Assembly (NCBI RefSeq): GCF_018205345.1 | Contig: NZ_JADRHM010000007.1 | Span: 1-54,234, forward strand | Direction: 5' to 3' | Source of the DNA: Fusobacterium sp. DD2 | GTDB lineage: Bacteria; Fusobacteriota; Fusobacteriia; Fusobacteriales; Fusobacteriaceae | DNA length: 54,234 nt | Part shown: one piece after another, positions 41-13,416 of the stretch | Position numbering within the stretch: position 1 is the stretch's first letter | How the letters are laid out: each line of letters begins with the position of its first letter | Program-made: the position numbers and the translations under genes | The notes under the pieces: generated by a model | What the model was told of the DNA's origin: nothing | The model's input: only the letters and a program-made list of their open reading frames with translations | Database searches by the model: none

Positions 41-3000
41 CTATTTGTCAGCTTCTTCAGAATAATCTAAGCTTGCTAGACGTTTATATTGTCTCCATCT
101 CTTTTGAGAGTCTTTTTGGTTTTGTTTGAATAATCTGTCAGCAGCAGCTGGGTTAGTTTTCTTCAATGACATATATCTAGTTTCACCCATTAGGTAATCT
201 TGATATAGTTCCCATTTAGGTTCTTTACAGTCTATTTGAAGAGGGTTCTTTCCTTCAGCTTCTAATGCAGGATTGTATCTGAATATTGGCCAGTATCCGC
301 ATTCTGTAGCTAACTTCATTTCTAATTGAGATTTATCCATACCTTTTTTAACTCCGTGGTTAATACAAGGTGCATAAGCAATTATAATTGAAGGTCCTTT
401 GTGAGCTTCTGCTTCTTGGATAGCTTTCAAGTATTGTTGTTGGTTAGCTCCCATAGAAACTTGTCCAACATAGATGTGTCCATAGCTCATGCAGATAGCT
501 GCAAGGTCTTTTTTCTTAATTGGTTTTCCTGCTGCAGCGAATTTAGCAACTGCTCCTGTAGGAGTTGCTTTAGAAGCTTGTCCTCCAGTATTTGAGTAAA
601 CTTCTGTATCCATAACGATTACGTTGATATCTTCGTTAGTTGCAAGAACGTGGTCTAATCCACCATAACCGATGTCATATGCCCATCCGTCTCCACCGAT
701 GATCCATTGAGATTTTTTAACAAGATATTGTTTTAATCCCATGATTTCTTTTGCATATTCTTCATTAGATTTTTCTAATATAGCTATAATCTTAGGAGAT
801 ACTTCTCTAGTTGCAGCAGCATATGCTCTTCCTTCTATCCATTTTTGGAATAGATCTTTTAATTCAGGAGATACTGTATCCATATTCTTTTCCATTACAT
901 GTTGAATTCTATCTCTTAAAGCTTCAACACCTATATGCATACCAAATCCATACTCAGCGTTGTCTTCAAATAGAGATGAAGCCCATGATGGTCCTTCTCC
1001 ATTACAGTTTTTAGTATATGGAGTTGATGGAGCAGATCCACTGTATACTGATGAACATCCTGATGCGTTAGAAGCCATCATTCTGTCTCCGAATAATTGA
1101 GAAATAACTTTCAAGTAAGGAGTTTCTCCACATCCTGGACAAGCACCATTGAATTCAAATAGTGGTTGACAGAATTGAGATCCTTTTACTGTTGAAGTTG
1201 ATAATCTATCATTTTTGTATGATACTTTTCCATATAAGTAAGTAGCTTTAACGTCTTCTTTGCTTTCAATTGATTCAGCAAGAGGTTTCATGATTAAAGC
1301 TTTCTTAGGAGCTGGACATACGTTAGCACATGATCCACATCCAACACAGTCAAGTGGAGTAACTTGCATTCTGTATGTTACATCTTCTAATCCTTTTCCA
1401 ATAGCTTTAACTGTAGTTAATTCTACTGGTGATGCATCTTTTTCTTCCTTAGTAATTAAGAAAGGTCTGATAGCAGCATGTGGACATACGAATGAACATT
1501 GGTTACATTGGATACAGTTTTCAGGTTGCCAAACTGGTACGTTAACTGCAACTCCTCTCTTTTCGAATGAAGCAGTTCCGTTTTCAAATGTTCCATCTTC
1601 TCTTCCATTAAATGCTGATACTGGAAGTTCATTTCCTTTTAGTGCTCCTATTGGATTAACGATATCTTTTACGAAGTTAGTTAGTACTTCAGTTTTACAG
1701 TTACATGTATCGTTTTCTACAGCTTCTACTTTCTTTTCTTCAACTGGTAAGTTAGCCCAAGCTGGATCAACTTCAATTTCAACGATTCCTGAAGCTCCCA
1801 TATCTATAGCTTTATAGTTTAATTGAACTATGTCGTCACCTTTTTTACCATAAGATTTTAAAGCATAGTCTTTCATATATTGTTGTGCTTCTTCAAATGG
1901 AATAATTTCAGCTAATTTGAAGAATGCAGCTTGCATTATTGTATTAGTTCTTCTTCCTAATCCAATTTCTTCAGCAAGTTTAGTAGCGTTGATTATAAAT
2001 AATTTAGCTTTTGCTTTAGCTAAGTCTCTCTTAACGTTGTTAGGAATTAGACGAATTGCTTCTTCTTTATCCCAAATACAGTTTAGTAGGAATTTTCCTC
2101 CTTCTTTGATACCTGAAGTCATATCATAGTGATATAAGTATGAAGGAACTGAACATGCTACGAAGTTAGGACTTGAAACTAAATATGTAGATTTAATAGG
2201 GTTCTTACCAAATCTTAAGTGAGATCTAGTAACTCCTCCTGATTTTTTAGAGTCATATGCGAAGTATCCTTGTGCATATAAATCAGTTTTATCTCCGATA
2301 ATTTTGATTGAGTTTTTGTTTGCTCCAACTGTACCGTCTGCTCCTAATCCATAGAATAGACAAGCTTTTGTAGATGGATCAGCAACTGGTAAAGTTTCTC
2401 CAACTTCTAGTGAAGTGAATTTAACGTCATCAATGATACCAACTGTAAAGTTATCTTTTGGTTGGTCTTGTTTTAAGTTATCTAAAGCAGCTTTGATTTG
2501 AGCTGGAGTAGTATCTTTAGAAGAAAGTCCATATCTTCCACCAACGATTACTGGTGCATTTTCTCTACCATAGTAGATTCCTCTTACATCTAGTAATAAT
2601 GGTTCTCCTGGAGCTCCTGGCTCTTTAGTTCTTTCCATTACTGCAATTTTTTCAACTGTTTTAGGCATTTCTTTAAAGAAGTATTCTCTAGAGAATGGTC
2701 TGTATAGGTGAACTGTTAATAATCCAACTTTTTCACCTTTTGCTGCTAAGTATTCAACTGTTTCTTCTGCAGCTTGACATATAGATCCCATAGCTACAAT
2801 TACACGAGTTGCATCTTTAGCTCCTGTATATTTAAATGGTTTATAAACTCTTCCTGTTTCTTTAGAAATTTCTTCCATATAGTGAGCAGCGATATCAGGT
2901 ACTGCATCATAGAATTTGCTTTGTGCTTCTCTTGTTTGGAAGTAAATGTCGTCGTTTTGAGCTGTACCTCTAGTAACTGGATGTTCTGGGTTTAAAGCTC

Positions 3001-3616
3001 TGTCTCTGAATTCTTGAATTGCTTTGTAGTCAACTAATCTCTTACATACATCGTAATCCATCAATTCAATTTTTTGAATTTCGTGTGAAGTTCTGAATCC
3101 ATCAAAGAAGTGTAATACTGGAACTCTTGATTTAATAGCAACTAAGTGTGCTACTGTACCTAAGTCCATAGCTTCTTGAACTGATCCACTGGCAATCATA
3201 GTAAATCCAGTTTGTCTAGCTGCATATATATCTTGGTGGTCACCAAAGATTGATAGAGCTTGAACTGAAAGTGATCTTGCTGATACATGAATAACTCCTG
3301 GTAATAATTCTCCTGCAATTTTGTACATGTTAGGAATTTTAAGTAGTAATCCTTGAGAAGCTGTATATGTAGTTGTTAGTGCACCTGCTTGAAGAGATCC
3401 ATGAACTGATCCTGCAGCTCCCCCTTCTGATTGTAGCTCAACTAATTTTACAGGAACATCAAAAATGTTTTTCATTCCTTTAGAAGCCCATTCATCAACA
3501 TACTCTGCCATAGGTGATGATGGAGTGATAGGATAGATCCCAGCAACTTCTGTAAATGCATAAGACGCATAAGCCGCAGCTGCGTTACCATCCATGGTTT
3601 TCATTACTTTTTTCAT
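41..3616 (-). CDS. nifJ: Pyruvate:ferredoxin (flavodoxin) oxidoreductase
   Basis: Oxidises pyruvate to acetyl-CoA and CO2 and passes electrons to ferredoxin or flavodoxin; a central cytoplasmic enzyme of anaerobic fermentation. At 1191 aa it is the usual single-chain, homodimeric form with all domains fused. Two 4Fe-4S ferredoxin motifs are visible (CIQCNQCSFVCP at 701-712 and CVGCGSCANVCP at 757-768). The thiamine diphosphate domain has CPGCG at 826-830, which supplies ligands of the third cluster, GDGWA at 975-979 and TEVYSNTGGQ at 1004-1013. The N-terminal pyruvate-binding part starts with a YPITPSS motif near residue 28. The ATG start has a GGAGG ribosome site at 3627-3631. It is monocistronic between terminators. 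No clear promoter could be fixed in the AT-rich leader. Confidence 0.97.
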   Translation of the reverse strand: MKKVMKTMDGNAAAAYASYAFTEVAGIYPITPSSPMAEYVDEWASKGMKNIFDVPVKLVELQSEGGAAGSVHGSLQAGALTTTYTASQGLLLKIPNMYKIAGELLPGVIHVSARSLSVQALSIFGDHQDIYAARQTGFTMIASGSVQEAMDLGTVAHLVAIKSRVPVLHFFDGFRTSHEIQKIELMDYDVCKRLVDYKAIQEFRDRALNPEHPVTRGTAQNDDIYFQTREAQSKFYDAVPDIAAHYMEEISKETGRVYKPFKYTGAKDATRVIVAMGSICQAAEETVEYLAAKGEKVGLLTVHLYRPFSREYFFKEMPKTVEKIAVMERTKEPGAPGEPLLLDVRGIYYGRENAPVIVGGRYGLSSKDTTPAQIKAALDNLKQDQPKDNFTVGIIDDVKFTSLEVGETLPVADPSTKACLFYGLGADGTVGANKNSIKIIGDKTDLYAQGYFAYDSKKSGGVTRSHLRFGKNPIKSTYLVSSPNFVACSVPSYLYHYDMTSGIKEGGKFLLNCIWDKEEAIRLIPNNVKRDLAKAKAKLFIINATKLAEEIGLGRRTNTIMQAAFFKLAEIIPFEEAQQYMKDYALKSYGKKGDDIVQLNYKAIDMGASGIVEIEVDPAWANLPVEEKKVEAVENDTCNCKTEVLTNFVKDIVNPIGALKGNELPVSAFNGREDGTFENGTASFEKRGVAVNVPVWQPENCIQCNQCSFVCPHAAIRPFLITKEEKDASPVELTTVKAIGKGLEDVTYRMQVTPLDCVGCGSCANVCPAPKKALIMKPLAESIESKEDVKATYLYGKVSYKNDRLSTSTVKGSQFCQPLFEFNGACPGCGETPYLKVISQLFGDRMMASNASGCSSVYSGSAPSTPYTKNCNGEGPSWASSLFEDNAEYGFGMHIGVEALRDRIQHVMEKNMDTVSPELKDLFQKWIEGRAYAAATREVSPKIIAILEKSNEEYAKEIMGLKQYLVKKSQWIIGGDGWAYDIGYGGLDHVLATNEDINVIVMDTEVYSNTGGQASKATPTGAVAKFAAAGKPIKKKDLAAICMSYGHIYVGQVSMGANQQQYLKAIQEAEAHKGPSIIIAYAPCINHGVKKGMDKSQLEMKLATECGYWPIFRYNPALEAEGKNPLQIDCKEPKWELYQDYLMGETRYMSLKKTNPAAADRLFKQNQKDSQKRWRQYKRLASLDYSEEADK

Positions 3617-3763
3617 AATTTAACTTCCTCCTTTTACTAGTACCATTTCTTAACTTAACTTAAAAATATTTATCTACTAAAATATAAATATATTAAAAGT
3701 ATATTTATAATAATTGTAGGCAATCACATTGTTACAAATATAATTTCAAACAACCCTCATACT

Positions 3764-3811
3764 GAAAAAGCGTATCACCAAATAATAATATTTTTCGTTA
3801 TTTGGTGATAC
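3764..3811 (-). terminator. Terminator of the megL-nhaC operon
   Basis: A 14-bp perfect inverted repeat (3772-3785 and 3798-3811, loop 12) is followed in the minus direction by CTTTTTC. It lies about 65 bases after the stop of the NhaC-family gene. The plus side is also T-rich, but no plus-strand gene feeds it. Confidence 0.75.
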
Positions 3812-3876
3812 CTTTTCCTTAAATACTTTAAAAAAGACTTATGATCTTAATACATATTAGTATTATATCATATTTT

Positions 3877-5250
3877 TTATTCAAAATCTGCATTTTCTTC
3901 TAATTTTTCAGATACCGGAGTTTTATTGACAAATGCAAGAACTGCATCACTAATCTTAGGTATCATAATATAAACTATTGTTACTACCCCTAGTAACATT
4001 TGATACCAAAGTAATGGAATTAGTTGTGCTGGAGATACTCCATTTTGAGTAAATCCTAACAGAATTAACATCTGTGCCCCATATGGTATAGCTCCTTGTG
4101 CAATACATGAGAATATATCTAGAATAGCAGCACTTTCTCTTAAGTCTACGTCATATTTAACAGCTAATTGTTTAGCAATTTGACCATTAACAATTATGGC
4201 AACTGTGTTATTTGCAACAGCTATATCTGTAACTGTTACTAGCATACCAATTCCAAATTTTGCACTTTTCTTACCTATTACCATGTTTTGGATTTTATCA
4301 ATAACCCATTGAACTCCACCCTCTTTTGTAACCATGCTGGCCATTCCACCTGTGATCATTGATAATAGGAATATTTCATTCATTCCTGTAAATCCATTAT
4401 ATATTTCTTTACCAAATTCCAATAGTGTAAAGTTTCCATAAGCTAACCCTATTACTCCAGAAAGTACAACTCCTGAAGCTAAAACTACGAAAACGTTTAC
4501 TCCTACAAGTGCCATGACTAGAACAAATATATAAGGTAATATCTTAATAAATGTATAGTCATGTACCATTGCTTCTGGAACTACATCTGGTCTTCCAAAG
4601 ATGAAAAGCAATACTATTGTTGCAATAGCTGCTGGCGCTGCGATAAATAAGTTAATTCTGAACTTATCTCTCATTGCAACTCCTTGAGTTTTAGTTGCAG
4701 CGATAGTTGTGTCAGATATAACTGATAAGTTATCTCCAAACATTGCTCCACCCATTACTGATGCAAGAATAAGTGCCATAGAAATTCCACTTTTCTCTCC
4801 TAGCCCAACTGCTATCGGTCCAAGTGCAACAATTGCACCAACTGATGTACCAGTGGCTGTAGAAATAAATGCCCCTATGATAAATAATCCAACTGCAATA
4901 TAATGAGGTGGAATATAAGTTATTCCAAAGTTTACTGTTGAGTCAACTCCACCCATTGCTTTTGAAACTGATGCGAATGCTCCAGCAAGTAGATATATTA
5001 TACACATAGTAATTATATCTTCATGCCCACATCCTTTGAGGAATGTATTAAACTTTTCTTCAATTTTCCCTTTGAAGCATAGGAATGCAACAACTACACC
5101 AGCTCCTGCTGCAACTGGTCCAGGTAATTGATAGAAAGCCAGTTCTACGCCTTGGAAGTGTAACACAATCCCAGTTCCTAAATAAATAACGATAAAAACA
5201 ATAAACGGAATCAAACCTTTAAAACTTCCTTTGATTTGCTTTTCTATCAT
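3877..5250 (-). CDS. NhaC-family antiporter/transporter, co-transcribed with megL
   Basis: A 457-aa integral membrane protein with about eleven hydrophobic segments. The motif GDNLSVISDT (172-181) is the hallmark of the NhaC Na+/H+ antiporter superfamily. The family contains true sodium/proton antiporters and also members linked by genome context to sulfur amino acid transport (MetT type). Here the gene starts 25 bases after the end of a methionine gamma-lyase and shares its promoter and terminator. Transport of methionine, a related amino acid, or the 2-oxobutyrate and ammonium-linked products is therefore as plausible as plain pH homeostasis. Family assignment is firm; substrate is inference. 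Confidence 0.85.
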   Translation of the reverse strand: MIEKQIKGSFKGLIPFIVFIVIYLGTGIVLHFQGVELAFYQLPGPVAAGAGVVVAFLCFKGKIEEKFNTFLKGCGHEDIITMCIIYLLAGAFASVSKAMGGVDSTVNFGITYIPPHYIAVGLFIIGAFISTATGTSVGAIVALGPIAVGLGEKSGISMALILASVMGGAMFGDNLSVISDTTIAATKTQGVAMRDKFRINLFIAAPAAIATIVLLFIFGRPDVVPEAMVHDYTFIKILPYIFVLVMALVGVNVFVVLASGVVLSGVIGLAYGNFTLLEFGKEIYNGFTGMNEIFLLSMITGGMASMVTKEGGVQWVIDKIQNMVIGKKSAKFGIGMLVTVTDIAVANNTVAIIVNGQIAKQLAVKYDVDLRESAAILDIFSCIAQGAIPYGAQMLILLGFTQNGVSPAQLIPLLWYQMLLGVVTIVYIMIPKISDAVLAFVNKTPVSEKLEENADFE

Positions 5251-5275
5251 ATATTTTCCCCCATCTTAATATATT

Positions 5276-6463
5276 TTATATTTTATCTAAACCATATTCC
5301 AAATCAGCAATAATATCTTCGATATTTTCTAACCCAACTGATAATCTTACTAATCCGTCAGTAATTCCAGCTGCTTCTCTTTCTTCTTTACTGTATGGTG
5401 AGTGAGTCATTGATGCAGGGTGTTGAATTAGAGTTTCTGTATCTCCTAAAGAAACTGCCAGTGAGCAAAGTTTTACATTATTTAGTAATGTCTTACCAGC
5501 TTCAAATCCACCTTTAAGTTCAAATGAAATCATTGCTCCAAAGTCTTTCATTTGTTTTTTAGCAACTTCATGTCCTGGATGAGTAGCTATTCCTGGGTAG
5601 TATACTCTTTCAACTTTTGGATGATTATTTAAGAATTCAGCAACTTTTCTAGCATTTGCACAGTGACGTTGCATTCTGATTTCCATAGTTTTTAATCCTC
5701 TGATGATATAGAAAGCTTCCTGAGGTCCTAATACAGCTCCTGTCATGTCTTTTACACCAACAAGTCTGATTTGGTCAGCAAGTTCTTTTCTACTTACAGC
5801 GAATCCAGCAACTACGTCTCCGTGTCCATTTATATATTTAGTAGCTGAGTGAACAACTATGTCTACACCTAAAGTTAAAGGTCTTTGTAAATATGGAGTC
5901 GCAAATGTATTGTCAACTATTACTAATGTATTAGGATTAGTATGTGCAACATCCACTATTTTCTTTAAGTCAACTATTTTTAAGTTAGGGTTTGCAGGTG
6001 TTTCTAAGTATACTATACGAGTATTTGGTTTCATTGCTTTTTTAACTGCTTCAGCATCTGATGTATCTAGGAAAGTAACTTCTACACCGAATCTAGTTAA
6101 TCCGTGATTCATTAAAGCAAATGTACATCCATATAGAGTTGTATCAGTTATAACATGATCTCCAGCTTTTAAGAATGTCCATAGAGTTGATGAGATTGCT
6201 CCAATTCCTGATGATGTTGCAACTGCTGCTTCTCCTTCTTCTAATGCTGCAACTCTAGCTTCTGCTATTGCAGTTGTAGGGTTTCCTAAACGAGAATAAA
6301 TAAATCCATCTTCTTGAAGAGCAAAACGTCTTCCACCTTGTTCTGCAGAATCAAATACGAATGTAGATGTTTGATAAATAGGTACTGCTAATGCACCATA
6401 ACCATTTTTTGTTGCTCCAGCATGTATTGCTTTTGTTCCAAATCCAAAATTTTTTTCTTTCAT
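5276..6463 (-). CDS. megL: Methionine gamma-lyase, copy 1
   Basis: A PLP enzyme of the Cys/Met metabolism family that splits L-methionine to methanethiol, 2-oxobutyrate and ammonia; also expected to act on homocysteine and cysteine. Visible landmarks are the YSRLGNP phosphate-binding segment (Tyr56, Arg58), Tyr111 and Cys113 in TTLYGCTF (a Cys at this place is typical of methionine gamma-lyases), Asp184, and the PLP lysine Lys209 in SATKY. At 395 aa it is full length. It differs from the copy at 9721-10911 at only 16 aligned positions by my hand alignment. It is first in an operon with the NhaC-family gene. The promoter block upstream is shared with copy 2. Confidence 0.95.
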   Translation of the reverse strand: MKEKNFGFGTKAIHAGATKNGYGALAVPIYQTSTFVFDSAEQGGRRFALQEDGFIYSRLGNPTTAIAEARVAALEEGEAAVATSSGIGAISSTLWTFLKAGDHVITDTTLYGCTFALMNHGLTRFGVEVTFLDTSDAEAVKKAMKPNTRIVYLETPANPNLKIVDLKKIVDVAHTNPNTLVIVDNTFATPYLQRPLTLGVDIVVHSATKYINGHGDVVAGFAVSRKELADQIRLVGVKDMTGAVLGPQEAFYIIRGLKTMEIRMQRHCANARKVAEFLNNHPKVERVYYPGIATHPGHEVAKKQMKDFGAMISFELKGGFEAGKTLLNNVKLCSLAVSLGDTETLIQHPASMTHSPYSKEEREAAGITDGLVRLSVGLENIEDIIADLEYGLDKI

Positions 6464-6506
6464 TTTAAACCCCCTCGTATTTTTTTACAGAATTCAACAT
6501 AAATTC

Positions 6507-6577
6507 CTATAGTATAATAATAGTATAATTTGAACTATAAATCAATACTTTTTACTAAAAACTGTCATAGTACAGTT
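6507..6577 (-). promoter_or_regulatory. Promoter/operator block of megL copy 1
   Basis: Minus-strand promoter: -35 TTGATT (6540-6545), 17-bp spacer, -10 TATTAT (6517-6522). Just upstream is an 18-bp interrupted palindrome AACTGT-N6-ACAGTT (6560-6577). The whole 71-bp block matches the block in front of megL copy 2 (10964-11034) at 65 of 71 positions with no gap. The palindrome and -35 are identical in both. It is a likely binding site for the MocR regulator coded beside copy 2. Confidence 0.75.
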
Positions 6578-6590
6578 AAAAAAAGCTTTT

Positions 6591-6622
6591 TTAAAAAAAC
6601 AGAAGAGAAAAATCTCTTCTGT
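6591..6622 (-). terminator. Terminator of the abgB-yfcC operon
   Basis: A 10-bp perfect stem (ACAGAAGAGA at 6599-6608, TCTCTTCTGT at 6613-6622, loop of four) is followed on the minus strand by a run of T. It lies 22 bases past the yfcC-type stop. Confidence 0.8.
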
Positions 6623-6643
6623 TTTAAAGATAATTTTTATCAA

Positions 6644-8047
6644 TTATACATAACTTATTTTTACTGCAACAGCAAGTGAAATCAGTGCAATAATAGTTAA
6701 TATAACAATGAGTGGCATCAAGAACTTATACCATTTTTTTAATGGAACTCTTGACCAAGATAACAACATCAAAAGTGTTCCGTATGTAAACCATGTCATA
6801 TTAGTTATACCGTCACCAAACTGGTAAGCTAATATTGCAGTCTGTCTTGTTAAACCAACTAAATCTGCTAAAGGAATAACTAAAGGCATCAAAGCCATTG
6901 CTTTTCCTGATCCTGAAGGAACAAGACCATTAAGAAGAGATACTATGATAAATATACCAATTGCTGAAGCTACTGGTGGCCAACCTTGAATTGCATTTGA
7001 TAATGTGTGAATTATTGGGTCAACTGCTCCACCTGCATCAAGTATCCATTGTACCCCTCTTGCAATACCAACTATTAAAGCACCATTTATTGAGTTTTTC
7101 ATACCTTGTATCATATGATTAACTATTGTATCTACACCCATCTTATTGATTATTCCTAACAGAATTCCATAAGCCAGAAATGCAGCTGTCATATCATTTA
7201 TATTCCATCCAAGTTTCATCATACCAAATACAATGAATATAAATGTAATAGCTAAAGTTATAAGTGATAATTTTTGAGCAAAAGTCATTTCCTGTTTATT
7301 TAACTCTTCAAAATCCATCTTAAGATCAGATACATCTACGTCTTTAGTTAGTGATAGTTCTGGATTTTTCTTAACTTTATTTGCATACCTTACTGTATAT
7401 ATCATAGCAACAGCAACAAATATCACAAATACAACAGTTCTGAATCCCATACCAGAAAATAATTTTAATTCAGCAATTTCATGGCTTACTCCAACTGTAT
7501 ACATATTTGTTGGCCCAATAGCAAATGATACAAATAGTCCTAAGATTACAACTGCAGCTGCAGTCATTGCATCATAACCAAGAGAGATAATAATTGGAAT
7601 TACTATTGGTACAAAAGGAATAGCTGCTTCTATCCACCCTAAAAATCCACCAAGTATTGAGAAGAAAATCATAAAAATCCAAATCAGTGCATTACTGTCT
7701 TTCTTTTTACCTGTAGCTTTAACCAGCATTGAAATACCCATTCCTAAAGCCCCACTCTGTGTAAGTACTTCAACTACTCCTCCAACTATAAGTATTAAGA
7801 ATACAATACTTCCTGAACCAATAAGTCCATATGGAACTGCTCTAAAAAAGTCTAGAAAATCAACTGGTGAACGAGAAACAGCATGATATGATGTTGGATC
7901 AATAACTGTTCTGCCATTTACAACAACTCTTTCATAAGCCCCAGGACTTACAACAAAACTTAGTAATCCAGCAATTATTATTACCGCAAATAACAATGCA
8001 TATGGATTTATATTTCTGCTTTTCTTTTCTTTATTCTTATTAAACAT
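6644..8047 (-). CDS. YfcC/DcuC-type membrane carrier
   Basis: A 467-aa protein with about twelve hydrophobic segments and a basic N-terminus. Its overall look, including the GGFLGWIEAAIPF segment and the C-terminal GLVPSGSGKAMALMPL segment, fits the YfcC family of the DcuC/AbgT-like ion transporter group. These are proton- or sodium-driven carriers of carboxylates, peptides or aminoacyl compounds. It lies 42 bases after the M20 amidohydrolase gene and is transcribed with it, so it most likely imports the amidohydrolase substrate. Family is well supported; substrate is not known. Confidence 0.8.
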   Translation of the reverse strand: MFNKNKEKKSRNINPYALLFAVIIIAGLLSFVVSPGAYERVVVNGRTVIDPTSYHAVSRSPVDFLDFFRAVPYGLIGSGSIVFLILIVGGVVEVLTQSGALGMGISMLVKATGKKKDSNALIWIFMIFFSILGGFLGWIEAAIPFVPIVIPIIISLGYDAMTAAAVVILGLFVSFAIGPTNMYTVGVSHEIAELKLFSGMGFRTVVFVIFVAVAMIYTVRYANKVKKNPELSLTKDVDVSDLKMDFEELNKQEMTFAQKLSLITLAITFIFIVFGMMKLGWNINDMTAAFLAYGILLGIINKMGVDTIVNHMIQGMKNSINGALIVGIARGVQWILDAGGAVDPIIHTLSNAIQGWPPVASAIGIFIIVSLLNGLVPSGSGKAMALMPLVIPLADLVGLTRQTAILAYQFGDGITNMTWFTYGTLLMLLSWSRVPLKKWYKFLMPLIVILTIIALISLAVAVKISYV

Positions 8048-8089
8048 AAAAAACCTCCACTTTTAGTAATTGCTCTGTAACCCTATATT

Positions 8090-9532
8090 CTATTTTTCTA
8101 TTTCTGGATTTCTTGGTTTAATCTCCTTAGGAACAGATGTAACATAATCTCCTACTACATCTTTAAATTCCTTTTTAGCTTTTTCAATAAGTTCAGGATG
8201 TTTTACCATATTGATTGCTGCTGTTGCCATTCCACCAACTGCTGCAAAAAGTCCTTTTTTAGCAATATCTGATTTTGCCTGAGAACACATTTGCCATGAA
8301 TGCAATGGAGTTCCAACTGCAGCTGTAGCCATAAACATCTGTGCTGTAGGAATATAATGGCTTAACTCTCCTGCATCTGATGTTATAACTTGAGGTGCTC
8401 CGTATTTTCCATCAAATGGAGCCATCTCTGTATCTAACCCATTTGAAATCATCTTATCTGCTAATTCTGTTCCTAACTGGTTGATAAGCTGTTTTCTTGC
8501 ACTGTTACGTGCTTCATCACTTAAAGAATTATAAAACTCTTTAGCTAGTTTTATATCCTTTTCATCAAACTTAGGTAAACCAAATTCTTTTATAGAATCA
8601 TATAAAACTTTAGACATAACTAAGTTTGGAACAAAATCTGCAATAGCTATTTTAAAGTCTATCTCAACTTCTGTACCACACATCATTGCAGCACCTTTAG
8701 CTATATTATTTATTCTATGATATATCTCTGTTGAATCCTGAATTTTATTACTTCTTATGAAATAGTATAAAGTTGCATTTGGTTGTACAACGTTAGGTGC
8801 CTTACTTCCAGCATCTAAGTAAGAGTAATGTATTCTTGCATCTGATACAACATGTTCTCTTAAGTAATTTACACCAACATTCATCAGTTCAGCACTATCT
8901 AAAGCGGATCTTCCTAATTCAGGTGCAGCAGCAGCATGTGAAGGTATTCCTTTAAATTTGTACACTGCTATGGTATTAGCTAATGATCCTCCATCCCATA
9001 TTGCGTTATAAAAAGCTGGATGCCATGTAAAAGCAAAATCTACTCCTTTGTAGACTCCGTCACGTCCAAAAAAAACTTTGGCTGCGTCCCTTTCTTCTGA
9101 AGGAGATCCAAATAGTTTAACAGTTCCAGGGATATTGTGTCTTTCAAGATAATCGGCAATAACAAGAGCCGCACCCACAGTTCCACTACCTAAAAGGTTG
9201 TGTCCACAACCATGACCTGCTTCCTGATTTTCTATTGCTTGTTCTACTGGTTTAGACGCTACTTGGCTAAGTCCTGGTAATGCATCATATTCACAAGATA
9301 TACCTATAACTGGTTTTCCTGATCCTTTTGTTGCTACAAAAGCTGTTTTCATTCCAGAAATACCTGTTTCTACAGAAAAACCTTTTTCTTTCATTACTTT
9401 AATGATTTCCTCTGCAGATTTATACTCTTCCAATCCTAATTCAGGATTATCCCATAAATAATTACAAAGATTCTCATATATTGGTCTATTTTCTTCAACT
9501 ATATTTTTAATTTCATTTATAAATTTATCCAA
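8090..9532 (-). CDS. M20-family amidohydrolase, AbgB-like (TTG start)
   Basis: A zinc-dependent amidohydrolase of the M20 family, closest in look to AbgB, the p-aminobenzoyl-glutamate hydrolase B subunit. Visible motifs are EYDALPG (81-87), HGCGHN (107-112), SPSEERD (143-149), a histidine at 171, and PSHAAAAP in the dimerisation domain. Length 480 aa is normal for AbgB. The start is TTG (9530-9532), eight bases after a strong GGGGAGG site at 9541-9547; no in-frame ATG lies near. There is no abgA partner. Co-transcription with a YfcC carrier and position between two methionine gamma-lyase genes suggest it may deacylate an N-acyl or peptidyl sulfur amino acid rather than a folate fragment; that is inference. 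Confidence 0.85.
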   Translation of the reverse strand: MDKFINEIKNIVEENRPIYENLCNYLWDNPELGLEEYKSAEEIIKVMKEKGFSVETGISGMKTAFVATKGSGKPVIGISCEYDALPGLSQVASKPVEQAIENQEAGHGCGHNLLGSGTVGAALVIADYLERHNIPGTVKLFGSPSEERDAAKVFFGRDGVYKGVDFAFTWHPAFYNAIWDGGSLANTIAVYKFKGIPSHAAAAPELGRSALDSAELMNVGVNYLREHVVSDARIHYSYLDAGSKAPNVVQPNATLYYFIRSNKIQDSTEIYHRINNIAKGAAMMCGTEVEIDFKIAIADFVPNLVMSKVLYDSIKEFGLPKFDEKDIKLAKEFYNSLSDEARNSARKQLINQLGTELADKMISNGLDTEMAPFDGKYGAPQVITSDAGELSHYIPTAQMFMATAAVGTPLHSWQMCSQAKSDIAKKGLFAAVGGMATAAINMVKHPELIEKAKKEFKDVVGDYVTSVPKEIKPRNPEIEK

Positions 9533-9663
9533 GATGATAACCTCCCCTTGAGTATTGAAATGTAATATTTTATTCCTATGTATTGCTCAAAAGAAGCAAT
9601 TTTTAGTCAATTACTCCAATATTCTTTTTTTATAAAAAGATTAATTAACAATATTATATATTT

Positions 9664-9687
9664 GGCGTAGTAGATATCTACTACGCC
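9664..9687. repeat. 24-bp perfect palindrome between abgB and megL copy 2
   Basis: GGCGTAGTAGAT followed by its exact complement, with no loop base. It lies 33 bases after the megL stop and 132 bases before the abgB start. It could end megL transcription (but no T run follows on the minus strand) or be an operator for abgB-yfcC. The GC-rich ends stand out from the AT-rich surroundings. Confidence 0.6.
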
Positions 9688-9720
9688 TATATACACTATA
9701 TAAATTTAATTTTCAAATTA

Positions 9721-10911
9721 CTATTTAATTTGATCTAATCCGTATTCTAAGTCAGCAATAATATCTTCAATATTTTCTAATCCTATTGATAATCTTACTA
9801 ATCCGTCAGTAATTCCTGCTGCTTCTCTTTCTTCTTTACTGTATGGTGAGTGAGTCATTGATGCAGGGTGTTGAATTAGAGTTTCAGTATCTCCTAGTGA
9901 AACTGCCAGTGAGCAAAGTTCAACATTGTTTAGAAGTGTTTTACCAGCTTCGAATCCACCTTTAAGTTCAAATGAAATCATTGCTCCAAAGTCTTTCATT
10001 TGTTTTTTAGCAACTTCATGTCCTGGATGAGATGCTAATCCTGGGTAGTAAACTCTTTCTACTTTTGGATGATTATTTAAGAATTCAGCAACTTTTCTAG
10101 CATTTGCACAGTGACGTTGCATTCTGATTTCCATAGTTTTTAATCCTCTGATGATGTAGAAAGCTTCTTGAGGTCCTAATACAGCTCCTGTCATATCTTT
10201 TACACCAACAAGTCTGATTTGATCAGCTAATTCTTTTCTACTTACAGCGAATCCAGCAACTACGTCTCCGTGTCCATTTATATATTTAGTAGCTGAGTGA
10301 ACTACAATATCTACACCTAATTTTAAAGGATTTTGTAAATATGGAGTAGCGAATGTATTATCAACTACTACTAATGTATTTGGGTTAGTGTGTGCTACTT
10401 TAACTATTTTTTCAAGGTCAACAATTTTTAAGTTAGGGTTTGCAGGTGTTTCTAAGTATACAACACGTGTATTAGGTTTCATTGCTTTTTTAACTGCTTC
10501 AGCATCTGATGTATCCAAGAAAGTAACTTCTACACCAAATCTAGTTAATCCGTGGTTCATTAAAGCAAATGTACATCCGTATAGAGTTGTATCAGTTATA
10601 ACGTGATCTCCAGCTTTTAAGAATGTCCATAGAGTTGATGAGATTGCTCCGATTCCTGATGATGTTGCTACTGCAGCTTCTCCACCTTCTAATGCTGCAA
10701 CTCTAGCTTCTGCTATTGCAGTTGTAGGGTTTCCTAAACGAGAATAGATAAATCCATCTTCTTGAAGAGCAAAACGTCTTCCACCTTGTTCTGCAGAATC
10801 AAATACGAAAGTTGATGTTTGATAAATAGGTACTGCTAATGCTCCGTATCCATTTTTTGTTGCTCCAGCATGTATTGCTGTTGTTCCGAATCCAAATTTT
10901 TTGTTTTCCAT
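9721..10911 (-). CDS. megL: Methionine gamma-lyase, copy 2
   Basis: A 396-aa PLP enzyme that splits methionine to methanethiol, 2-oxobutyrate and ammonia. It keeps all landmarks of copy 1: YSRLGNP, the Tyr-Gly-Cys segment, the PLP aspartate and the SATKY lysine. The 16 differences between the copies are mostly conservative (I/V, K/E, T/S), so both are probably active and recently duplicated or kept alike by gene conversion. Long nucleotide stretches are also the same. It is transcribed alone, divergent from the MocR regulator 143 bases away. Confidence 0.95.
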   Translation of the reverse strand: MENKKFGFGTTAIHAGATKNGYGALAVPIYQTSTFVFDSAEQGGRRFALQEDGFIYSRLGNPTTAIAEARVAALEGGEAAVATSSGIGAISSTLWTFLKAGDHVITDTTLYGCTFALMNHGLTRFGVEVTFLDTSDAEAVKKAMKPNTRVVYLETPANPNLKIVDLEKIVKVAHTNPNTLVVVDNTFATPYLQNPLKLGVDIVVHSATKYINGHGDVVAGFAVSRKELADQIRLVGVKDMTGAVLGPQEAFYIIRGLKTMEIRMQRHCANARKVAEFLNNHPKVERVYYPGLASHPGHEVAKKQMKDFGAMISFELKGGFEAGKTLLNNVELCSLAVSLGDTETLIQHPASMTHSPYSKEEREAAGITDGLVRLSIGLENIEDIIADLEYGLDQIK

Positions 10912-10957
10912 TTTTTAACCCCCTATAAGTTTGTTTAAGTAAAATCTTTTAATTTAT

Positions 10958-10986
10958 TTGTTTCTATAGTATAATGTTAGTATAAA
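10958..10986 (+). promoter_or_regulatory. Promoter of the MocR gene
   Basis: Plus-strand -35 TTGTTT (10958-10963), 17-bp spacer and -10 TATAAA (10981-10986). It overlaps the divergent megL promoter. The operator palindrome at 11017-11034 then falls in the 5' leader of the MocR transcript, which would allow autoregulation. Confidence 0.5.
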
Positions 10987-11034
10987 ATGAACTATAAATC
11001 AATAGTTTTTCCTAAAAACTGTCATAGTACAGTT
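10964..11034 (-). promoter_or_regulatory. Promoter/operator block of megL copy 2
   Basis: Second copy of the 71-bp block. Minus-strand -35 TTGATT sits at the same place as in copy 1; the matching -10 reads TAACAT after a 17-bp spacer. The palindrome AACTGT-N6-ACAGTT is at 11017-11034. Only six substitutions separate it from the block at 6507-6577. It lies in the divergent space between megL and the MocR gene. Confidence 0.75.
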
Positions 11035-11054
11035 CAAAAACCCAAGGAGGATAT

Positions 11055-12482
11055 ATGCGCACGAAAATAAACAGAGATTCACAAATTACTATTTCTACTC
11101 AGTTATTTGAGATTTTAAAGCGAGATATTCTACAAAATAATTGGAAAGAAAATTCTCGCTTTTATTCAATACGACAGGTATCTATAAAATACGATGTAAA
11201 TCCAAATACTGTTTTAAAAGTATTTCAAACTCTTGAAGAACAGGGATATCTATTCAGTATCCAGGGAAAAGGAAGCTATATAAAGAAAGGTTATAATCTT
11301 GATGTCAGTGAAAGAATGGCACCGATTTTAAACACTTTTAAATTAGGACAGGATAATAAAAAAGGGGAAATTAATCTATCTAACGGAGCTCCACCAAGTG
11401 AATTCTTTCCTACAGAGGCATATAGAAAGATTTTAGGAGCAATACTTTCAGATAAAGAGGAAAGTAAAATACTTCTTGGATATCAAAACATTCAAGGTCT
11501 TGAAAGTTTAAGAAAAGTAATACCAAACTATTTAAAGAAATTTAAAATTAATGTTAGTAAAGATGATATTATTATCGGCACATGTACACAGAGCATCCTG
11601 AGCCTTATATGTACAACATTCAATCAAATGCCAAAAAAAACCATGCTACTATCTAAACCTACATATCAGAATGCTGTTAGAATATTTGAAAATTACTATA
11701 ATATTGAAAATATCAATCTGCTTCCTGATGGTTGGGACATGGAAGAATTTGAACTGCTTTTAAAAAGAAAAAAAATTGATTTTATTTATGTAATGACCAA
11801 TTTCCAGAATCCAACTGGAATTACCTGGTCAGAGAAAAAGAAAAGAAAACTTTTGGAATTATCTCTAAAATATGACTTTTATATCATAGAGGATGAATGT
11901 TTCTGTGATTTCTACTATGATGGTAATATTCCAACCTCTTTAAAATCTATAGATACTAAAGAGAGAGTATTCTACTTAAAAACATTTTCTAAAAGTGTAA
12001 TGCCTGGTATAAGTTTGGCACTGTTTATACCTCCAAAATCATTTTTAGAAAAATTCAGCTTAAATAAATACTTTGTAGATACTACTACATCTGGAATAAA
12101 TCAAAAATTTCTTGAGATATATATAAAAAATGGAATGATGGAAGAACACCTTGAAAAATTGAGAGAGATTTTCTCTAAAAAGATGGAATATGTAATAAAT
12201 AAACTTTATAATATTCCACATTTGAGAATTACACATATACCTAAAGGAGGTTTTTTCCTATGGATAGAGCTTGCTAACTATATCGATGGGGAAAAGTTTT
12301 ACTACAAATGTAGGTTGAGAGGTCTATCAATACTTCCTGGATTTTTATTTGATTCCACTGGTCGAACATCTTGCAACATTAGAATCAGTATTGTATCAGC
12401 AAACCTTGATGAAATTGATGCTGGATTTGACATTATTGCTGATATTCTAAAGCACTGTAACGGCATACCAAAATCTGTATAA
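11055..12482 (+). CDS. MocR-type regulator (GntR helix-turn-helix fused to aminotransferase)
   Basis: A 475-aa transcription factor. Residues 10-80 form a GntR winged helix (YSIRQVSIKYDVNPNTVLK, then a GKGSY turn). Residues 105-470 form a fold-type I aminotransferase domain with NPTG (252-255), Asp280 and the PLP lysine Lys313 in TFSKSVMPG. In this family PLP or an amino acid adduct acts as the effector sensor. It diverges from megL copy 2, whose operator block is repeated at megL copy 1, so it is the obvious candidate regulator of both lyases. The ATG has an AAGGAGG site at 11044-11050. Confidence 0.92.
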   Translation: MRTKINRDSQITISTQLFEILKRDILQNNWKENSRFYSIRQVSIKYDVNPNTVLKVFQTLEEQGYLFSIQGKGSYIKKGYNLDVSERMAPILNTFKLGQDNKKGEINLSNGAPPSEFFPTEAYRKILGAILSDKEESKILLGYQNIQGLESLRKVIPNYLKKFKINVSKDDIIIGTCTQSILSLICTTFNQMPKKTMLLSKPTYQNAVRIFENYYNIENINLLPDGWDMEEFELLLKRKKIDFIYVMTNFQNPTGITWSEKKKRKLLELSLKYDFYIIEDECFCDFYYDGNIPTSLKSIDTKERVFYLKTFSKSVMPGISLALFIPPKSFLEKFSLNKYFVDTTTSGINQKFLEIYIKNGMMEEHLEKLREIFSKKMEYVINKLYNIPHLRITHIPKGGFFLWIELANYIDGEKFYYKCRLRGLSILPGFLFDSTGRTSCNIRISIVSANLDEIDAGFDIIADILKHCNGIPKSV

Positions 12483-12525
12483 TAAAATGTTATTCTGTAT
12501 AAAATATTATTAGGAGTTGTGAGAT

Positions 12526-13416
12526 ATGTATTATATGGCATCTAAAAAAAGCACGGCCAGAATATATGCTTTTTTGTCAATTTTTCTCTGGTCTACATCT
12601 TTTGTATCTACTAATATTATTATATCTACAGACGCATTGAACCTGAGAGAGGTTCATACGCTTAAATTTTTATTAGCATCAATTATTTTACTGTTTTTAG
12701 TTTTTATTTTAAAAATGCAGATACCATCATTTATGGATTTGGTAAAATTTTCCCTGTGTGGGATTTTTGGGTACACTGCATATATTTATTTTCTTCATAA
12801 GGGGATTGAAACACTACCTGCACACAATATCTATTTTACCAATGCACTATGTCCAATAATGATTATATTTTTAAGCTATAGTCTTTTTAGGACACGTACA
12901 ACGGGACTTGCTAAACTTGGCCTTTTTATTTCAATGGTTGGAGTTATAGCCCTCTATGTCAATATGAATAAGTTTAAAATAAACACTGGTATTCTTTATA
13001 TGTTTGTTGCAACTGTATTTTTTTCCTTTTACAGTATTTTGCAAAAGCTCGTAGTAAAGAAATATCGACCTATAGAAGCTATGGCATACAGTTTAATTAC
13101 TGGAAGTATATTTATTATCCTTATGAATTATGATACAATATTAGTAATAAAGGATCTAAGTTATAAATCTTATTTCCATCTTTTATACCTTGCTATTTTC
13201 CCTGGTATATTGGGATTTTATTTTTGGAGCAAAGGAATCGAAGTTTGTCATAATACAGTTGATGTGGCTTACTGGATGTTTTTACTTCCAGTTGCTGCTG
13301 TAATTTATTCTGTTTTATTTTTAAATACGCCACTTAATATTTATATATGTATTGGCCTATTTTTGATACTTCTAGGTATGATAATATTTTCAATATATAG
13401 AAGATATAACTATTAA
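12526..13416 (+). CDS. EamA/DMT-family transporter
   Basis: A 296-aa membrane protein with about ten hydrophobic segments and the internal twofold repeat of EamA drug/metabolite transporters, a family of amino acid and metabolite exporters. It starts 43 bases after the MocR stop, so it is likely in the same transcript. MocR regulators often sit beside such exporters; here it might export methionine or a related compound (inference). The first ATG at 12526 is preferred because AGGAG at 12512-12516 is nine bases away; a second ATG at 12535 is possible. Confidence 0.85.
   Translation: MYYMASKKSTARIYAFLSIFLWSTSFVSTNIIISTDALNLREVHTLKFLLASIILLFLVFILKMQIPSFMDLVKFSLCGIFGYTAYIYFLHKGIETLPAHNIYFTNALCPIMIIFLSYSLFRTRTTGLAKLGLFISMVGVIALYVNMNKFKINTGILYMFVATVFFSFYSILQKLVVKKYRPIEAMAYSLITGSIFIILMNYDTILVIKDLSYKSYFHLLYLAIFPGILGFYFWSKGIEVCHNTVDVAYWMFLLPVAAVIYSVLFLNTPLNIYICIGLFLILLGMIIFSIYRRYNY

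What the first reader, a model, noticed from the sequence alone, without database searches (positions are those of the whole stretch)
6507..11034. Two nearly identical methionine gamma-lyase genes share one 71-bp promoter/operator block
The proteins differ at 16 positions and the two upstream blocks at 6 of 71, including an identical AACTGT-N6-ACAGTT palindrome and -35. The MocR-type regulator is divergent from copy 2. The duplication thus kept control with the gene and made a small regulon: megL-nhaC, megL and the regulator itself. Methanethiol and hydrogen sulfide output would be set by one PLP-sensing regulator.
Basis: partly seen in the sequence, partly recalled or inferred. Interest (0 to 1): 0.6.

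Follow-up and report, generated by a model that had tools for sequence, protein, structure and literature searches.

The report
Duplicated MocR-controlled methionine gamma-lyase promoter
A Fusobacterium-family genome carries two copies of the gene that breaks methionine down to smelly methanethiol, each with its own copy of the same switch; that switch recurs at a fixed distance from the promoter in many related bacteria, so it is probably a landing site for the neighbouring vitamin-B6-type regulator, acting as an activator.

Summary
MegL1 (5276-6463, -) and MegL2 (9721-10911, -) differ at 16 residues plus one extra C-terminal Lys. Their upstream blocks differ at 6 of 71 bases, and both carry AACTGTCATAGTACAGTT, the only two exact AACTGT-N6-ACAGTT sites in the 2.36-Mb genome. 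A MocR regulator (11055-12482, +) diverges from copy 2. The four closest relatives have the single-copy form PFOR-nhaC-megL<>mocR with the same operator, so the window shows a tandem duplication of operator, promoter and megL, with an unrelated M20-DcuC gene pair between the copies. The operator is one instance of a family-wide MocR operator class (AASTGT-N6-ACASTT). In 26 of 26 megL promoters that carry it, the predicted -35 starts 14-15 nt beyond it or, in one genus, 4 nt (one helical turn nearer); shuffled sequence gives about 2.5% per position. This geometry, shared with most pdxS, patB and AlaX-like divergons, argues that MocR activates megL-nhaC and represses itself. "One regulator sets output" is not: published F. 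nucleatum work shows ModR and CarR also control megL. PLP and methionine sensing remain inferred. New member of a known kind (MocR divergon).

The parts
5276..6463 (-). megL copy 1, methionine gamma-lyase, 395 aa, followed by nhaC
   Evidence: NCBIfam TIGR01328 E 9e-187, above cut-off; 96% identical to copy 2
3877..5250 (-). nhaC-type transporter; gene order matches metT of F. nucleatum, cotranscribed with megL copy 1 by inference
   Evidence: Pfam Na_H_antiporter E 7e-19; megL-metT cotranscription shown in F. nucleatum (PMC9600241); synteny
6507..6577 (-). 71-bp operator/promoter block of copy 1
   Evidence: 6/71 differences from copy 2
6560..6577 (.). operator palindrome AACTGTCATAGTACAGTT, copy 1
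   Evidence: one of two exact sites in the genome
6540..6545 (-). predicted -35 TTGATT of megL copy 1, 14 nt beyond the operator
6517..6522 (-). predicted -10 TATTAT of megL copy 1 (spacer 17)
9721..10911 (-). megL copy 2, methionine gamma-lyase, 396 aa
   Evidence: NCBIfam TIGR01328 E 1e-187
10964..11034 (-). 71-bp operator/promoter block of copy 2, shared with the mocR divergent region
11017..11034 (.). operator palindrome, copy 2; ends 20 bp before the mocR ATG
10997..11002 (-). predicted -35 TTGATT of megL copy 2
10974..10979 (-). predicted -10 TAACAT of megL copy 2 (spacer 17)
11055..12482 (+). MocR-type regulator: GntR HTH plus class I aminotransferase-like domain; PLP lysine K313 in KTFSK
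   Evidence: Pfam GntR and Aminotran_1_2; PdxR NCBIfam model E 1e-83 but below its cut-off
12526..13416 (+). EamA-family transporter downstream of mocR; same position in G036 and G037
8090..9532 (-). M20 amidohydrolase lying between the two megL copies; no operator upstream
   Evidence: at most 45% to any other hit in the family
6644..8047 (-). DcuC/YfcC-type transporter, second gene of the pair between the copies
   Evidence: Pfam DcuC E 2e-81
6599..6622 (-). hairpin with U-run, likely terminator insulating DcuC from megL copy 1
   Evidence: read from sequence

Best explanation
The locus derives from the fusobacterial arrangement PFOR-nhaC-megL divergent from mocR, in which a MocR regulator binds one AASTGT-N6-ACASTT operator in the shared intergenic region. 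In the window, operator, promoter and megL were tandemly duplicated, so megL1-nhaC and the single-gene megL2 each carry an intact operator. MocR bound there would sit about 58 bp upstream of each megL start, on a fixed face of the helix, and most likely recruits RNA polymerase; the copy-2 site lies just before mocR and would repress it. The likely signal is PLP together with a sulfur amino acid, by analogy with GabR. Shown: duplication, operator identity and rarity, conservation and fixed spacing in relatives, intact PLP residues. Inferred: binding by this MocR, activation, autorepression, the signal.
For: Ancestral single-copy divergon with the same operator in G036, G037, G016 and G015; their MocRs and the window's form one 100/100 clade. 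Only two exact sites in the genome. All 26 operator-bearing megL promoters have the -35 at 14 (20), 15 (3) or 4 (3) nt, against 2.5% and 2.3% expected at 14 and 4 in shuffles. The same spacing (13-14) holds in most pdxS, PatB-type and AlaX-like MocR divergons and similar spacing in nhaC promoters elsewhere; PdxR is a published activator with autorepression in other bacteria (PMC5320631). The palindrome ends 20 bp before the mocR ATG. Active-site Asn, Asp, Lys and Arg motifs are kept.
Against: No binding or expression data exist for this genome. PdxR in the same genome has an operator of the same class, so the binder could be shared. In several genomes megL keeps the operator without an adjacent mocR, and the MocR found there has no such operator upstream of itself. 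megL-linked MocRs are not one clade. Positions of -35 and -10 are predictions. Published regulators of F. nucleatum megL (ModR, CarR) are different proteins.
Confidence: 0.72

Rival explanations
1. MocR is a repressor of megL at this operator, relieved by methionine and PLP, rather than an activator.
For: The operator lies in a shared divergent region; ModR represses megL in F. nucleatum, so negative control of this gene is precedented (PMC9600241).
Against: The site lies entirely upstream of the -35 with a conserved 14-nt gap, shifting by exactly 10 bp in one genus. This is expected of an activator contacting polymerase, not of occlusion. Described MocR proteins usually activate the divergent target (PMC5320631).
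Confidence: 0.18
2. The palindromes are bound mainly by the genome's PdxR (contig C9, next to pdxS), tying methionine breakdown to vitamin B6 status; the local MocR has another role.
For: The PdxR divergon carries AAGTGTACCCATACACTT, the same operator class, with a similar spacing.
Against: The central six bases differ between megL sites (mostly a TAT core) and pdxS sites (ACCGAT or ACCCAT type). The local mocR has stayed next to megL, with the operator, in G015, G016, G036 and G037.
Confidence: 0.12
3. The 71-bp similarity is simply what remains of a recent tandem duplication, with no retained regulatory role for copy 1's operator.
For: The genes are 93% identical, so some promoter similarity is expected. 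Against raw third-position divergence the block's conservation is only marginal (P 0.057).
Against: The block diverged less than synonymous sites (P 0.003) while the leader next to it is diverged. The operator and its spacing are conserved across genera.
Confidence: 0.1

Closest known systems
MocR/GabR-subfamily divergons (PdxR-pdxST, GabR-gabTD, TauR; PMC5320631)
   Same: GntR HTH plus aminotransferase-like domain, divergent target, TGT-containing repeats, operator in the shared intergenic region
   Different: Target is a methionine gamma-lyase with an NhaC transporter. Methionine and Fusobacterium are not mentioned in the survey's main text (its supplementary tables were not read). Operator is a single 18-bp inverted repeat, whereas two-inverted-box motifs are 20% of the regulons in that survey.
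F. nucleatum megL-metT operon (PMC9600241)
   Same: megL followed by a methionine transporter gene metT; nifJ (PFOR) nearby in the gene numbering (PMC12186487)
   Different: Single megL; described control is by ModR and CarR; no MocR control mentioned in the passages read
Fusobacterial PatB-NhaC(-MegL) clusters divergent from another MocR (own contig C29, G024, G025, G027)
   Same: PLP-dependent C-S lyase plus NhaC next to a MocR
   Different: Different MocR clade; own site is degenerate (AACTGTTATATACCAGAA) though also 14 nt from TTGACA

Membership tests
MocR subfamily of GntR regulators | N-terminal GntR winged helix-turn-helix | tested here: met
   Pfam GntR 28.4 bits, cut-off 27
MocR subfamily of GntR regulators | C-terminal class I aminotransferase-like domain with PLP lysine | tested here: met
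   Aminotran_1_2 E 6e-26; K313 aligns with the Lys of TFSK in solved aminotransferases
MocR subfamily of GntR regulators | PLP-dependent DNA binding and effector response | not testable with these tools
   needs purified protein
PdxR (B6 biosynthesis regulator) | Score above NCBIfam NF052282 cut-off | tested here: not met
   281.9 bits, cut-off 320; the genome has a separate MocR beside pdxS
PdxR (B6 biosynthesis regulator) | Linked to pdxS/pdxT | tested here: not met
   Linked to megL and eamA
MocR divergon | Regulator divergent from target with a shared operator | tested here: met
MocR divergon | Activation of target and autorepression | tested here: inconclusive
   Geometry fits; no expression data
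Methionine gamma-lyase | Equivalog model score | tested here: met
   TIGR01328 623 and 621 bits, cut-off 549.7; full-length best match to solved L-methionine gamma-lyase 7bqw

The most novel reading that the evidence does not exclude
A family-wide class of MocR activators in Fusobacteriaceae is phase-locked to its promoters: one 18-bp inverted repeat 14 nt, or exactly one turn less, from the -35. Here a MocR senses PLP plus a sulfur amino acid to switch on C-S lyases and NhaC-type transporters. This would be a sulfur-amino-acid counterpart of GabR controlling methanethiol and H2S.
Probability: 0.45. Interest if true: 0.5.

Novelty: new member of a known kind. Interest (0 to 1): 0.36.

Why it matters
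MegL is a major H2S-producing enzyme of F. nucleatum and contributes to virulence in a mouse preterm-birth model (PMC9600241). I found no paper in the held library that assigns it a cognate MocR regulator. The conserved operator, its fixed spacing and the existing F. nucleatum genetics make a direct test easy. The locus is also a clear case of a gene duplicated together with its switch.

Tried and rejected
A second half-palindrome AACTAT-N6-ATAGTT (10990-11007), found at 2 mismatches, is absent from copy 1 and relatives; with 199 sites against 143 in control at that stringency it is near chance level. A CarR-like 17-mer in the -10 region matches 13/17 in both copies, but shuffles reach this in 22-25%: inconclusive. 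No Rfam riboswitch lies in the region. The genome-contig scan with the MocR protein alone found nothing; the scan with a MegL alignment named one relative, F. gastrosuis, whose 1,816,688-bp contig equals G015. Gene conversion between the megL copies: longest identical run 95 nt, P 0.06, not claimed. The fourth own-genome site (C18) lies 17 nt from its -35, before a 139-aa gene of unknown function, and is not added to the regulon. Structure prediction was not run because sequence matches already fix the fold.

Full report
OBSERVATION. Both megL genes, the 71-bp blocks and the palindromes are as described. The proteins differ at 16 positions plus one extra Lys in copy 2; 54 codons differ silently; dN 0.026, dS 0.25, so both copies are under purifying selection. 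The blocks differ at 6 of 71. That is less than synonymous divergence (about 21.6%, binomial P 0.003), though only marginally less than raw third-position divergence (15.7%, P 0.057). The leader between the -10 and the start codon has diverged. Exact AACTGT-N6-ACAGTT occurs only at these two places in 2.36 Mb, with no hit for the reversed pattern. AASTGT-N6-ACASTT occurs four times, with no control hits.

ORIGIN OF THE ARRANGEMENT. In the window, megL copy 1 has the ancestral left side (nhaC, PFOR) and copy 2 the ancestral right side (mocR, eamA). So operator, promoter and megL were duplicated in tandem. An M20 amidohydrolase and a DcuC-type transporter lie between the copies with no operator of their own; the M20 has a match in only 9 of 61 family genomes, the window's own included, at up to 45% identity elsewhere. 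The locus itself looks laterally acquired. DNA polymerase I of the same contig is 71-74% identical to five same-genus genomes and 56-57% to G036/G037, whereas MegL is 83% identical to G036/G037 (77% at best in its own genus), NhaC 80% (72%) and MocR 67% (49%).

OPERATOR AND GEOMETRY. Upstream of megL in 24 other family genomes a site of the form AASTGT-N6-ACASTT with up to 2 mismatches is found. An independent promoter score places the -35 hexamer 14 nt (20 promoters), 15 nt (3) or 4 nt (3) beyond the site in all 26 promoters, including both own copies. Shuffled downstream sequence gives 2.5% at 14 and 2.3% at 4. The three 4-nt cases are all in one genus (G030, G033, G034), exactly 10 bp nearer. 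Many of these genomes are close kin, so 26 is not 26 independent events; several genera are nevertheless represented. The operator centre then lies about 58 (or 48) bp upstream of the start, a position typical of activators (general knowledge of activator-dependent promoters). The same class of site with the -35 at 13-14 nt occurs in most other MocR divergons examined: pdxS, PatB-type, AlaX-like. It also occurs before nhaC in G034 (15 nt) and G001 (read by eye at 13 nt), and in degenerate form before patB in the own genome (14 nt, read by eye; PatB identity). The central six bases differ between megL sites and pdxS sites, which may set specificity.

REGULATOR. The protein has GntR and class I aminotransferase-like domains. 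It scores below the PdxR cut-off and groups with the MocRs of G036, G037, G016 and G015 with 100/100 support. NPTG, the ED motif, K313 in KTFSK and the C-terminal Arg are kept. The palindrome ends 20 bp before the mocR start codon, consistent with autorepression. megL-linked MocRs elsewhere (G001; G052 and G056) fall in other parts of the tree, so the pairing of megL with a MocR was probably formed or swapped more than once.

WHAT IS KNOWN. A survey of MocR regulons (PMC5320631) describes MocR proteins as often activating a divergent target and repressing themselves; its main text mentions neither Fusobacterium nor methionine. In F. nucleatum, megL and the downstream metT, a methionine transporter, are cotranscribed from a promoter upstream of megL, and ModR represses megL (PMC9600241). 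CarR binds the megL promoter (PMC12186487). No paper on MocR control of a methionine gamma-lyase was found in the held library.

VERDICT. The regulon is well supported by sequence, with a predicted direction (activation of megL-nhaC and megL2, autorepression of mocR). The claim of a single controlling regulator is not supported, and the signal is untested. It is a new member of the MocR divergon kind.

Noticed in passing
window 41-13416: The PFOR-nhaC-megL-mocR segment is much closer to G036/G037 than the chromosome backbone is (MegL 83%, MocR 67% against DNA polymerase I 56-57%), suggesting lateral acquisition of the locus.
   Followed up: partly
L125 (own contig C29), 1335-5529: A second C-S lyase (PatB family) with an NhaC gene is divergent from another MocR; a degenerate operator sits 14 nt from its TTGACA. 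PLP-dependent C-S lyases next to MocR genes may be a general fusobacterial theme.
   Followed up: partly
L186, 1501-1518 (own contig C18): Fourth operator-class site in the genome, AAGTGTTTTATCACACTT, 17 nt from a TTGACA, upstream of a 139-aa protein of unknown function.
   Followed up: partly
L143, 3993-4010 and L130, 5851-5868: AACTGTACTCATACAGTT and AACTGTAGTCATACAGTT sites, the latter shared by several g3 genomes, lie inside open reading frames rather than promoters; probably conserved coding sequence.
   Followed up: no
window 8090-9532 and 6644-8047: M20 amidohydrolase plus DcuC/YfcC-type transporter pair between the megL copies; substrate unknown, M20 patchy in the family.
   Followed up: partly
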